Translations under genes and position numbers: made by a program
Part shown: positions 14,291 through 26,682 of the stretch, in pieces
Position numbering within the stretch: position 1 is the stretch's first letter
Layout: each line of letters starts with the position of its first letter
The notes under the pieces: generated by a model
Told to the model about the DNA's origin: nothing
The model's database searches: none
What the model saw: only the letters and a program-made list of their open reading frames with translations
DNA from: Helicobacter pylori PMSS1
GTDB lineage: Bacteria; Campylobacterota; Campylobacteria; Campylobacterales; Arcobacteraceae
Direction of reading: 5' to 3'
Length of the DNA: 34,085 bases
Assembly: GCA_945883785.1 (NCBI GenBank)
Contig: CAMCYD010000010.1
Coordinates: 1-34,085 of the forward strand

Positions 14291-14695
14291 ATGGAACATT
14301 TATTATATTCTTCAGACGAGATGTTTTCGTCTACATATTTAATTAGACAAAGTAAACAAATATTTGATAAATTAAATGCGAAAGAGATAGCCAAAGCAGT
14401 TATCTTACGAGATGGAAAACCCTCATTTATAATGCTAGAGTTTGATAATTATGAAAAAATAATGGCTGACTATGATATGTTAAAAGACAACTCTTTAAAA
14501 TTCAAGCAAAATAAGAAACAAACTAAAATACAAACTATAGTACAAAATACAATTACGAATGAAGATACATCCGTAACAAAAATAATAGAGAATGAAGCTC
14601 CAGTTTCTATTGTATATGATGAATTTCAAGTTGATTTAGAAGATGATTTTCAAAATGAACAAAGTGGCGAAATGAAAGACTTTTGGAATAAATAA
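14291..14695 (+). CDS. Phd/YefM-like protein without a toxin partner
   Basis: A 134-aa protein. Residues about 12-62 match the pattern of Phd/YefM antitoxin N-terminal domains: a helix ending in QSKQIFDKL, a strand with KAVILRDGKPSFIMLEF, then NYEKIM. The remaining 70 residues are Gln/Lys-rich then strongly acidic and probably disordered, ending DFWNK. No RelE/Doc-type toxin gene is adjacent. Instead the stop overlaps the sdhA start by 1 nt (TAATG), so it is translationally coupled to the flavoprotein. A regulatory or assembly role for the reductase is a guess. Confidence 0.7.
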   Translation: MEHLLYSSDEMFSSTYLIRQSKQIFDKLNAKEIAKAVILRDGKPSFIMLEFDNYEKIMADYDMLKDNSLKFKQNKKQTKIQTIVQNTITNEDTSVTKIIENEAPVSIVYDEFQVDLEDDFQNEQSGEMKDFWNK

Positions 14696-16281
14696 TGAAG
14701 TTTGATTATGATGTTATTATTATTGGAAGTGGAGGAGCTGCGCTCAGTTGTGCTATTAGGGCAAAGCAAAAAGGATTGTCAGTTGCAATCATTACAAAGT
14801 CAAATACAACTGCTTCTCAAACGGTTCAGGCTCAAGGTGGGTTAAATGGTGTGCTGGATGATGGTAGCGATACCATAAAAGCTCATATTGAAGATACTTT
14901 GAAATCCTCTAGCGAAATAGGGGATATTGAAGCTATAACATTTATGTGTGAAAATGCTAGAGAGGCTATAGAATGGCTTGATAGTCTGGGTGTTCCTTTC
15001 AGTAGAGATGAAAATAATCAAATAGCAAGAAGACAATTGGGCGGTGCAACTGCTAAACGAGCTTGTTATAGTTCTGATTATACTGGTTTAAAAATACTTC
15101 ATACACTGTATGACACCACTATTAAACTCAATATCCCAATATTTGAAAATTGTCTTTTACTGGATTTGATCATAAGCCATGGAGAAGTTTTTGGAATAAA
15201 CTATCTTGAACTTAAAACATCTGAGATAAAACAACTCTTTGGTGGAAATATCGTGCTCGCAACTGGTGGATACGGTGGAGTTTATCATGGATTTACTACG
15301 AATAGCAAAAATACTACAGCGGATGGAATTATGGCTGGTTTTAGAGCTGGAGTTGAGCTTGAAAATATGGAATTTATTCAGTTTCATCCAACTGCACTAC
15401 TTGACAGATTTATACTTATTAGTGAATCAGCACGAGGAGAAGGTGGTTATTTGGTCACAAAAGATGAAAAACGATTTGTGAATGAGTTGCTCTCGAGGGA
15501 TTTGGTTGCACGAGAAATTTACAAAAAGATTCTTAACGATGAAGAGGTTTTTCTTGATTTGCGACACATATCTAAAGAAAAATTGCTTCATTTGCTTCCT
15601 CAAGAATATAAACTTATCTTTAAATTTACTTCATTGCAGATGGATAAAGACTTAATTCCTATAACACCAGCTACACACTATACAATGGGAGGATTGAAGT
15701 GTAATAAAGACTCTAGAACTTCTTTAAATAATCTTTATGCAATTGGTGAAGTAGCTTCAAATGGTGTACATGGTGCCAATCGACTTGGAGGAAACTCGCT
15801 TTTAGAAATAGTGGTATTTGGGAAAAAATTGGGAGACTCGCTTCAGCCTTCAATCCTTTCATTGGAGGTGAGTGACAATACAACTTTCGAAAGAAATATG
15901 AAAGACATTGAATATATTTTTGATAATATTCCTACCTTGGACTTTTATAAATATAGAAAAAAGCTAGGAGAAATAATGTTTCTAAATGTTGGTTTGTTTA
16001 GAACACATGAGGGATTATTGGAAGCTTTCAATTTTGTTCAGGATATTATTGAAAATCTCGAAAAATTTAGTACTGATGATAAATCAAAATTATTCAATAC
16101 AAATTTGATAGAATTTTTAGAATTTAGGAATTGTGTTTTTTGTGCAAAAACAATAATTTTGAGTGCAAAAGAGAGATGCGAAAGTAGAGGTTCTCATTTT
16201 AGAAATGATTTTCCTAAACCATCGGATACATATAAAAAATCAACAATTATAAAGAGTCACTTGCAAATTCAAAGATTTTGA
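14695..16281 (+). CDS. sdhA: Fumarate reductase/succinate dehydrogenase flavoprotein subunit
   Basis: FAD subunit interconverting succinate and fumarate, 528 aa. Visible motifs are the dinucleotide fold IIGSGGAALSC (9-19), FHPTALL, the catalytic region SARGEGGYLV, HYTMGGLK, and the FAD/substrate-binding HGANRLGGNSLLE. At the position of the His that binds FAD covalently in E. coli SdhA/FrdA (SHTV-x-A-x-GG) there is Gln42 (SQTVQAQGG), so FAD should be bound non-covalently. No Tat or Sec signal is seen, so it is cytoplasmic. The last eight codons and stop come from a MITE-like element beginning at 16254. Without it the frame would end TIINNTFIVK just before sdhB. Confidence 0.92.
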   Translation: MKFDYDVIIIGSGGAALSCAIRAKQKGLSVAIITKSNTTASQTVQAQGGLNGVLDDGSDTIKAHIEDTLKSSSEIGDIEAITFMCENAREAIEWLDSLGVPFSRDENNQIARRQLGGATAKRACYSSDYTGLKILHTLYDTTIKLNIPIFENCLLLDLIISHGEVFGINYLELKTSEIKQLFGGNIVLATGGYGGVYHGFTTNSKNTTADGIMAGFRAGVELENMEFIQFHPTALLDRFILISESARGEGGYLVTKDEKRFVNELLSRDLVAREIYKKILNDEEVFLDLRHISKEKLLHLLPQEYKLIFKFTSLQMDKDLIPITPATHYTMGGLKCNKDSRTSLNNLYAIGEVASNGVHGANRLGGNSLLEIVVFGKKLGDSLQPSILSLEVSDNTTFERNMKDIEYIFDNIPTLDFYKYRKKLGEIMFLNVGLFRTHEGLLEAFNFVQDIIENLEKFSTDDKSKLFNTNLIEFLEFRNCVFCAKTIILSAKERCESRGSHFRNDFPKPSDTYKKSTIIKSHLQIQRF

Positions 16282-16413
16282 GTATGAATAGTAGCAATTA
16301 TTAGATTTTCACTTTAAAAATCACTATTTACTCCCTGTAAATGGTTATTTTTAAAGGGGAAAGATGATGATTGAAACTGTTTATAATCATTTGTTTGAAT
16401 TCGCAAGTGACTC
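16254..16413. mobile_element. MITE-like palindromic element, copy 1
   Basis: A 160-bp element with near-perfect 20-bp terminal inverted repeats (GAGTCACTTGCAAATTCAAA, 19 of 20 matching). It is flanked by a TAAA direct repeat (16250-16253 and 16414-16417) that looks like a 4-bp target duplication. The whole element folds back on itself as an imperfect long hairpin with an apical ATTTAC/GTAAAT stem. A second copy at 25277-25437 differs by about a dozen bases counted by eye. It encodes no transposase. It interrupts the sdhA-sdhB junction and supplies the sdhA stop codon. Confidence 0.88.
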
Positions 16414-16445
16414 TAAACAATACCTTTATCGTAAAGTAGGATGAG

Positions 16446-23690: not shown

Positions 23691-24374
23691 ATGATAGTTT
23701 ATGGCAAACAGATAGTATTTTATATTTTGGAAAAACATCCAAAAATCATCCGACAGATATTTTTAACAAAGGAACTTGATAAAAAATTGTTTAACAAATT
23801 TATGAATATTGGTGCAAAAATCATAAGACCAGATGAACAAAAAGCTCAAAGCTTAGCACGAGGAGGAAATCATCAAGGTTTTTTACTTGATATTGGTGAT
23901 TTTTGTTTCGAAGATATAAATCAAATTAAGAAAAAAGATTTTGTTGTTATTTTAGATGGACTTACGGATGTTGGGAATATTGGTGCTATTGCACGAACTT
24001 GCTATGGACTTGGAGTTGGTGGCTTAGTTATTTGTGGGCTTAAACATTTTGATATGGCTCCAGTTGTAAGAACAAGTAGCGGAACTGCACTTGATTTGCC
24101 AATCGCTTTGATTCAAAATAGTAGTGATTTAGCAAATGAACTTAAACAATTAAAGTTTACTTTGGTTGGTGCTGATGCTAGTGGGTATGATATTAAAACT
24201 GTAGAAAAAAATAAAGGGCAAAAAATAGCTTTATTTTTAGGTAGTGAAGGAGAGGGTCTATCTGGCAAAATTTTAAAAAAACTAGATATCAAATTATCCA
24301 TTAAAATGGAAAATAATTTTGATAGCTTGAATGTTTCAGTTGCTGCTGGGATATTAATACATTCTTTAACATAA
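23691..24374 (+). CDS. TrmH/SpoU-family rRNA 2'-O-methyltransferase (RlmB-like)
   Basis: SPOUT-fold RNA ribose methylase of 227 aa. Motif 1 is VGNIGAIARTCYGLG (catalytic Asn/Arg), motif 2 LFLGSEGEGLS, motif 3 LNVSVAAGILIHSL. A short N-terminal substrate-binding domain is present. It is most like 23S rRNA Gm2251 methylase RlmB, but tRNA methylases share these motifs. ATG 23691 begins MIVYGKQ, the family-like start; the frame is open 9 codons further, but no Shine-Dalgarno supports that. The stop overlaps the next start by 1 nt (TAATG). Confidence 0.88.
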   Translation: MIVYGKQIVFYILEKHPKIIRQIFLTKELDKKLFNKFMNIGAKIIRPDEQKAQSLARGGNHQGFLLDIGDFCFEDINQIKKKDFVVILDGLTDVGNIGAIARTCYGLGVGGLVICGLKHFDMAPVVRTSSGTALDLPIALIQNSSDLANELKQLKFTLVGADASGYDIKTVEKNKGQKIALFLGSEGEGLSGKILKKLDIKLSIKMENNFDSLNVSVAAGILIHSLT

Positions 24375-25207
24375 TGCTTTTAAATAGATTAGCAACCATT
24401 TTATTGTTAACCGTTTTAACAGTAAAAGCTGATTTAATAAATGACAAAATTATTAATTTAATAGATCAAGAATCCTATAATTTGCATAAAAGTTTAATTG
24501 ATGATATTACAAAAGATAAAGATTTTCTTCAAGAAGATAAAAAAATAGCCTATAATAGCCTCTTAAAAAGCTTAAAAGAGGAAGGACTTTTAAGTCTAGA
24601 TTTACCAGAACAAACCAATGTGACAATTTTATTCAATATCACAAATTCCAATAAAAAAGGGTTTAAAATAATAAAAAATGTTTTATCCAACATAGGATAT
24701 TCTTATTATTTTACCGATTTTATTAAAAATGCGGATGGAAATTTAATCTGGCAAATTCGCTTTAAAAGTGATTTCGCACTTGACCCTTTTACTTTTAATA
24801 ACGAACTAAGCAAATTTCAATCTTCCATATTGGATATAAAAAAACTAAGCAAAACTAACTGGGAATATAAAATTGATGTTAAAAATGGTATTTTACATAC
24901 TGTAAAAAATGTTTTATTAGATGAAACATTAATTTTGCAAATGCCTCTTGAAGCATATACTATGTCTTTACCAAACGGAAAAGATCTTCTTATTACAAGT
25001 GGAAAAGCGAATAGTTGGATTCCAAAAATTTCATTTTATGACAAAGAACTAAATGCTCTTGGCACAATTGAGATGGATAGGGTTTATGAGGGAATAAAAG
25101 TTGCTATTCCAAAAAACTCAAAATATGTGAAAATTAGTGATAAATACACTCTTTTAAATATTAAAAGAGGATTGTCCATTCTTGTTTCAAATAGTCTCAA
25201 TAATTAA
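24374..25207 (+). CDS. Predicted periplasmic protein, unknown function
   Basis: A 277-aa protein. A short signal peptide (LATILLLTVLTVKA, cleavage near residue 19) is followed by a Lys/Asp-rich helical region (20-75) and a mostly beta-strand remainder with IWQIRFKSDFALDPF and WEYKIDVKNG, repeated alternations typical of a sandwich fold. I do not recognise the family. It is coupled to the SpoU methylase gene by a 1-nt overlap and is followed by a gap holding a MITE copy. Confidence 0.7.
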   Translation: MLLNRLATILLLTVLTVKADLINDKIINLIDQESYNLHKSLIDDITKDKDFLQEDKKIAYNSLLKSLKEEGLLSLDLPEQTNVTILFNITNSNKKGFKIIKNVLSNIGYSYYFTDFIKNADGNLIWQIRFKSDFALDPFTFNNELSKFQSSILDIKKLSKTNWEYKIDVKNGILHTVKNVLLDETLILQMPLEAYTMSLPNGKDLLITSGKANSWIPKISFYDKELNALGTIEMDRVYEGIKVAIPKNSKYVKISDKYTLLNIKRGLSILVSNSLNN

Positions 25208-25276
25208 AAGGTTTTTTTGGCTAAAATTCAAAAAATAAAATTTAGAGGATTCTCTAAAAGAATAATTTAATAAATA

Positions 25277-25437
25277 GAGCCACTTGCAAATTCAAAGATT
25301 TTGAGTATGAATAGTAGCGATTATTAGATTTTCACTTCAAAAATCACTTTTTGCTCCTTCGCAAATGGTTATTTTTAAAGCAAAAAGATGATGATTGAAA
25401 CTGTTTATAATCATTTGTTTGAATTTGCAAGTGGCTC
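25277..25437. mobile_element. MITE-like palindromic element, copy 2
   Basis: A 161-bp element with perfect 20-bp terminal inverted repeats (GAGCCACTTGCAAATTCAAA), flanked by an AATA direct repeat (25273-25276 and 25438-25441). Compared with copy 1, GAGTC/GACTC has become GAGCC/GGCTC, and the apical TTTAC/GTAAA has become TTTGC/GCAAA. Both arms changed together, so pairing is kept. It fills most of the 257-bp gap between the periplasmic gene and alaC and has no coding capacity of its own. The rest of that gap holds only a 7-bp inverted repeat (25240-25257) and the alaC Shine-Dalgarno. Confidence 0.88.
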
Positions 25438-25464
25438 AATAATAAGCTTACGAAGGAAAATAAT

Positions 25465-26682
25465 ATGTTTGATGAAATAGAGTTTGATAGGATAAAAAGA
25501 TTGCCTAAATATGTTTTTGCTCAAGTGGGTGAACTGAAAATGGCACAAAGAAGAGCTGGTCATGATGTTATAGATTTTTCTATGGGAAATCCAGATGGAG
25601 ATACACCTGAACATATCAGAAAAAAACTAATTGAATCTGCACAAAAAACAAAAGTGCATGGTTATTCAGCTTCAAAAGGGATACCAAAACTCCTTGTAGC
25701 GATATCAGATTGGTACAAACGAAGATACAATGTAGACCTTGACCCACAAACAGAATGTGTTGCAACAATGGGAAGTAAAGAGGGATATGCTCATCTTGCA
25801 TACGCTATTACAAATCCTGGTGATGTTGCTGTTGTTCCTGATCCAACTTATCCAATCCATAGTTATGCATTTATTTTAGCAGGTGGAAATGTTGTAAAAT
25901 TTGAGCTTATTTTTGATGAAGATTATAAAGTTGATGAAGATAGATTTTTTGAAGATTTAGAGAGAGTTTTTAAAGGAAGTTCTCCAAAACCAAAATATGT
26001 TGTAGTAAACTTCCCACACAATCCAACAACAGCAACAGTAACTCCAGAGTTTTATGTTCGTATTGTTGAGATGGCAAAAAGGGAAAGATTTTATGTTATC
26101 TCTGATATCGCTTATGGAGATTTAACATTTGATGGGTACAAAACACCTTCAATTATGGAGGTTCCAGATGCAAAAGATGTTGCTGTTGAAAGTTTTACAC
26201 TCAGTAAATCATACAATATGGCTGGATGGAGAGTTGGGTTTTTTGTTGGAAATCCTAAATTAATTGGTGCTTTACAAAAAATTAAATCATGGCTTGATTA
26301 CGGTATGTTTACACCGATTCAAGTATCAGCTACAGTTGCACTTAATGGCGACCAACAATGTGTGCAAGACATTACAGATAAATATGACCATAGACAAAAT
26401 GTTCTGATAGAGGCATTTGGAAAAGCTGGATGGAAGCTTAGAAAAAATAGAGCTACGATGTTTGTTTGGGCTAAAATTCCTGATTGTGTTGCACATCTTG
26501 GAAGTTTAGAATTTAGTAAAAAACTCCTTGTTGAAGCTGGTGTAGCTGTTGCACCTGGTATTGGATTTGGTGAATATGGTGATAAATATGTGAGAATTGC
26601 TTTAATCGAAAATGATAAAAGAATCAGACAGGCAGCTAAAAATATCAAAGCTTTTTTGTCAAAGTATGAAAATACAAAGTAA
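25465..26682 (+). CDS. alaC: Alanine aminotransferase AlaC-like (class I/II PLP)
   Basis: Pyridoxal-phosphate aminotransferase of 405 aa. The sequence tracks E. coli AlaC over its whole length: RLPKYVFAQVGELK, VIDFSMGNPDG, TMGSKEGYAHL, SDIAYGDLTFDGYK, LSKSYNMAGWRVGF with the PLP lysine at about K248, and VAPGIGFGEYGDKYVRIALIEN. It is expected to interconvert pyruvate/glutamate and alanine/2-oxoglutarate. Related diaminopimelate aminotransferases are a less likely alternative. AAGGA precedes ATG 25465, just after the MITE. Confidence 0.9.
   Translation: MFDEIEFDRIKRLPKYVFAQVGELKMAQRRAGHDVIDFSMGNPDGDTPEHIRKKLIESAQKTKVHGYSASKGIPKLLVAISDWYKRRYNVDLDPQTECVATMGSKEGYAHLAYAITNPGDVAVVPDPTYPIHSYAFILAGGNVVKFELIFDEDYKVDEDRFFEDLERVFKGSSPKPKYVVVNFPHNPTTATVTPEFYVRIVEMAKRERFYVISDIAYGDLTFDGYKTPSIMEVPDAKDVAVESFTLSKSYNMAGWRVGFFVGNPKLIGALQKIKSWLDYGMFTPIQVSATVALNGDQQCVQDITDKYDHRQNVLIEAFGKAGWKLRKNRATMFVWAKIPDCVAHLGSLEFSKKLLVEAGVAVAPGIGFGEYGDKYVRIALIENDKRIRQAAKNIKAFLSKYENTK

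What the first reader, a model, noticed from the sequence alone, without database searches (positions are those of the whole stretch)
25277..25437. Two-copy hairpin element with terminal inverted repeats, 4-bp duplications and covarying stems
The copies at 16254 and 25277 share about 160 bp and 20-bp terminal repeats, and each is flanked by its own 4-bp direct repeat (TAAA, AATA). Their differences are compensatory: GAGTC/GACTC versus GAGCC/GGCTC at the ends, and TTTAC/GTAAA versus TTTGC/GCAAA at the tip. Retained pairing implies selection for the fold, in transposition or as RNA. I know of no named element matching it.
Basis: seen in the sequence. Interest (0 to 1): 0.65.

Follow-up and report, generated by a model that had tools for sequence, protein, structure and literature searches.

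The report
Abundant short transposon (MITE) family
The hairpin is one of well over a hundred copies of a short gene-less jumping DNA (a MITE) that carries the same ends as a normal bacterial insertion sequence found in related genera; it is a new example of a familiar kind, and its hairpin shows no sign of being kept by selection.

Summary
The element is real at both places: 160-161 bp, 20-bp inverted ends, 4-bp duplications. It is not a two-copy curiosity. The genome holds 291 matches to the 20-bp end (<=3 mismatches) and none to the reversed control. I read 73 two-ended copies; 43 of 70 have an exact 4-bp duplication (about 3 expected), and only 2 of 54 testable copies lie inside genes (random positions in the window: 65%). 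Three congeners show the empty site of the copy at 16254: it inserted in the 3' end of a succinate dehydrogenase/fumarate reductase flavoprotein gene and replaced its last seven residues. Other genera of the same family carry insertion sequences of about 1.5 kb with the same ends, 4-bp duplications and a 391-396-aa DDE transposase (DUF772 + DDE_Tnp_1, IS1182/IS5-like). This genome's assembly keeps only a 63-nt relic of that gene. The element is therefore a MITE, presumably mobilised in trans. The covariation argument fails: across 59 copies the end pair changes independently on its two sides (Fisher p = 0.60), and the tip pair belongs to one linked haplotype that includes unpaired bases. Ordinary; new member of a known kind.

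The parts
16254..16413 (+). MITE copy 1 (160 bp); inserted in the 3' end of the flavoprotein gene 14695-16281
16250..16253 (.). 4-bp target duplication TAAA, left
16414..16417 (.). 4-bp target duplication TAAA, right
16254..16273 (+). left terminal inverted repeat GAGTCACTTGCAAATTCAAA
16394..16413 (-). right terminal inverted repeat GAGTCACTTGCGAATTCAAA (read on - strand)
14695..16281 (+). FAD_binding_2/Succ_DH_flav_C flavoprotein gene whose last codons and stop are supplied by the MITE (ends KSHLQIQRF* instead of NNTFIVK*)
25277..25437 (+). MITE copy 2 (161 bp), between a gene of unknown function (24374-25207) and an aminotransferase gene (25465-26682)
25273..25276 (.). 4-bp target duplication AATA, left
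25438..25441 (.). 4-bp target duplication AATA, right
25277..25296 (+). left terminal inverted repeat GAGCCACTTGCAAATTCAAA, identical to one end of a related full-length IS
25418..25437 (-). right terminal inverted repeat GAGCCACTTGCAAATTCAAA (read on - strand)

Best explanation
The element is a MITE: a non-coding, non-autonomous DNA transposon of about 160 bp. A DDE transposase of an IS1182/IS5-like insertion sequence that carries the same 16-20-bp ends moved it and inserted it at AT-rich 4-bp targets, duplicating them. Shown: shared ends, 4-bp duplications in both the MITE and the full-length IS, many dispersed near-identical copies, an empty site in congeners, and a relic of the IS transposase gene in this genome. 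Inferred: that this transposase, and no other, moved it in trans, and that the source was lost or is missing from the assembly. Also inferred: the hairpin is a by-product of the element's origin (for example an inverted duplication), and only the ends are needed for movement.
For: 291 end matches against 0 in the reversed control. 73 two-ended copies, 43/70 with exact 4-bp duplications against about 3 expected from swapped flanks; 2/54 inside gene interiors against 65% of random window positions. Mean identity between full-length copies 94.8%, i.e. a recent burst. Among seven congeners only short marginal matches of 24-44 bases were found, in two of them, so the burst is confined to this genome. 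The same 20-bp end lies at the tips of longer elements across Campylobacterota. Full-length IS, mostly 1493 bp and up to 1525-1534 bp, with matching ends, 4-bp duplications and a 391-396-aa transposase in other genera of the same family. MITE ends 20/20 identical to one end of IS L171, interior unrelated. IS relic in own genome, 92% over 63 nt. Empty site aligned without gaps across the junction in three congeners.
Against: No intact copy of that transposase is in the 97%-complete assembly, so the trans-acting enzyme is not shown in this cell. 27 of 70 copies lack an exact duplication (6 of them match at 3 of 4 bases); at least one pair (L003, L005) shares a flank, which looks like assembly chimerism or recombination between copies, but this was not resolved.
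Confidence: 0.9

Rival explanations
1. A structured RNA (regulatory or terminator-like element) kept by selection for its fold, spread by transposition.
For: Very stable fold, z about -11.8; one copy lies between two adjacent co-directional genes of an apparent operon and could be co-transcribed. Unpaired columns vary slightly more often than paired ones (14/26 v 45/134, p = 0.07).
Against: Changed pairs are overwhelmingly one-sided: 74 mismatch, 69 G-U and 7 Watson-Crick cells, against 30 two-sided Watson-Crick cells, 24 of which are one tip haplotype. No Rfam family. No visible orientation preference relative to neighbouring genes (-/- 9, -/+ 7, +/+ 6, +/- 6). The interior was not found in congeners.
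Confidence: 0.04
2. The fold itself is under selection as DNA, for example because a hairpin or cruciform is the transposition substrate.
For: The palindrome extends through almost the whole element, well beyond the 20-bp ends.
Against: Full-length IS relatives with the same ends and 4-bp duplications carry a gene in the middle and share only the ends. Short (71-149 bp) and interrupted (296-321 bp) copies keep 4-bp duplications, although those changes may postdate insertion. No recurrent compensation.
Confidence: 0.05

Closest known systems
Bacterial MITEs (reviewed in PMC10969869)
   Same: Short, AT-rich, non-coding, terminal inverted repeats, target duplications, many intergenic copies, stable stem-loop, ends shared with an IS (features as given in PMC10969869)
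   Different: This sequence family was not found described: no paper in the held library joins MITEs and Arcobacter, and none contains the 16-base end CACTTGCAAATTCAAA; the library is only the open part of the literature, and ISfinder was not available
IS1182/IS5-like insertion sequence of other genera of the same family and other Campylobacterota (L167, L171, L178)
   Same: Same GAGCCACTTGCAAATT ends and 4-bp AT-rich duplications
   Different: 1.5 kb with a transposase; the MITE shares only the terminal 16-22 bp convincingly, not the interior

Membership tests
MITE | Short, non-coding, multi-copy, dispersed | tested here: met
   160-161 bp, no transposase, at least 120 left ends over many contigs
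MITE | Terminal inverted repeats | tested here: met
   20 bp at both ends
MITE | Target site duplication of constant length | tested here: met
   43/70 exact 4 bp, about 3 expected
MITE | Ends shared with an autonomous element | tested here: met
   Full-length IS in the same bacterial family, and its relic in this genome
MITE | Mobilised in trans by that transposase | not testable with these tools
   needs a transposition assay
IS1182 family (partner IS transposase) | NCBIfam NF033551 curated cut-off, 270 bits | tested here: not met
   60-62 bits; distant similarity only, so not filed as a member
IS5 family (partner IS transposase) | NCBIfam IS5 models, cut-offs 110-140 bits | tested here: not met
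   best about 43 bits
Structured RNA family | Covariation beyond inheritance | tested here: not met
   no Rfam match

The most novel reading that the evidence does not exclude
A MITE family that reached well over a hundred copies as an almost complete palindrome, whose autonomous partner has since been lost from the species, and whose hairpin was kept symmetrical by repair or template switching (the linked tip haplotype being one such event), with copies read into operons shaping expression.
Probability: 0.08. Interest if true: 0.4.

Novelty: new member of a known kind. Interest (0 to 1): 0.2.

Why it matters
It identifies a MITE/IS pair in Campylobacterota, probably Arcobacteraceae. It explains part of the fragmentation of this assembly, since about two dozen contigs begin inside a copy. 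It also shows why two copies are not enough to claim covariation. The altered C-terminus of the flavoprotein is a concrete example of a MITE rewriting a gene's end.

Tried and rejected
Viral contigs hold no exact match to the 20-bp end and plasmids none to the MITE. The weak DDE_Tnp_1 hit at C131:59-277 is a broken stretch crossing a MITE end; it reads like a relic of a different, IS1182-type transposase and not of the partner IS. Rfam: nothing. Structured-RNA reading rejected on the 59-copy alignment. Literature searches for MITEs in Arcobacter, and for the end sequence itself, found nothing.

Full report
Observation. The two copies lie at 16254-16413 and 25277-25437 with 20-bp inverted ends and their own 4-bp duplications, TAAA and AATA. 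Each folds to about -68 kcal/mol, nearly twelve standard deviations below shuffles. No Rfam family matches.

Copy number. The window is contig C10 of a 2.65-Mb, 193-contig, 97%-complete genome. The 20-bp end occurs 291 times at up to 3 mismatches and its reversed control never. Left ends alone, by two exact patterns, number 8 + 112. From fetched stretches I read 73 copies with both ends, 59 of them 159-162 bp long. Mean pairwise identity of the 59 is 94.8%. Many contigs start inside a copy, so the repeat copies broke the assembly.

Insertion. Of 70 copies with both flanks, 43 have an exact 4-bp duplication. Pairing left flanks with right flanks of other copies gives about 3. Targets are AT-rich (commonest TTTA, TAAA, TATA), with a tendency to C or T before and G or A after. 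By a simple frame test, 2 of 54 sites lie inside a gene, against 65% of random positions in the window. For copy 16254 the flanks joined at one TAAA align without gaps across the junction to three congeners that lack the element. Read from the joined flanks, the flavoprotein gene continues for seven more codons (ending ...STIINNTFIVK*), whereas here the MITE supplies the ending ...STIIKSHLQIQRF*. For copy 25277 the two alignable congeners also lack it, but the intergenic alignment has gaps, so the exact empty site is less clean.

Partner. The same end occurs at the tip of longer elements in Sulfurimonas, Sulfurovum, Nitratifractor, Nautiliales and other Campylobacterota. A transposase from one of these matched 8 of 104 genomes of the window's own bacterial family. 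The full element is mostly 1493 bp, up to 1525-1534 bp, with GAGCCACTTGCAAATT-type ends and, at most sites, 4-bp duplications. Its 391-396-aa protein has DUF772 (PF05598) and DDE_Tnp_1 (PF01609) domains. NCBIfam IS1182 and IS5 models match far below their cut-offs, and a distant plasmid hit (34% identity) is annotated IS1182 family. The MITE shares its terminal 20 bp with one end of the IS of L171 at 100% and no convincing interior. One genome of the bacterial family, G101, has the same end at the same contig position as the record L093, titled Aliarcobacter butzleri, so the family is probably Arcobacteraceae; this is inference.

In this genome. The partial transposase and the DDE_Tnp_1 profile found no intact partner. 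A profile of four transposases found one relic at C1:96524-96598, 92% identical over 63 nt to the start of the IS gene of L171. So the IS was once here.

Covariation. The copy at 16254 is one of only two T-A copies. Pair 77-85, the tip, is strongly linked (G-C 32, A-T 24), but the unpaired columns 73 and 82 are linked as strongly to them, so two tip haplotypes are segregating and the evidence amounts to one event. Across all changed pair cells, 150 are one-sided (74 of them mismatches) and 34 two-sided (30 pairing), 24 of the latter being that haplotype. Between the two window copies, six of eight differing pairs changed on one side only.

Conclusion. Shown: a recent burst of a mobile element with the anatomy of a MITE and the ends of an IS found in related genera. 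Inferred: mobilisation by that IS's transposase, and loss or non-assembly of the source. No evidence of selection on the fold.

Noticed in passing
L038:1501-1796, L109:216-511, L153:216-511: Three copies carry a second hairpin of about 135 bp with a TCATTGCGAGG core nested at the tip, apparently at TA sites and in both orientations (L153 inverted): a second MITE-like family. 19 distinct contexts of the core occur in 204 kb of fetched own-genome DNA.
   Followed up: partly
L107:351-671: One copy is interrupted by another hairpin with ends of the type AGYGCCTCCAACTAATTA / TAATTAGTTGGAGGCACTT.
   Followed up: no
L102:59-277 (C131): Broken stretch resembling an IS1182-type transposase next to a MITE end, distinct from the partner IS.
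   Followed up: partly
L003 and L005: Two copies on different contigs share the same right flank (ttttgtcacaactt), suggesting assembly chimerism or recombination through the repeat.
   Followed up: no
L043:1501-1570: A 70-bp derivative is a near-perfect palindrome made of two right arms.
   Followed up: no
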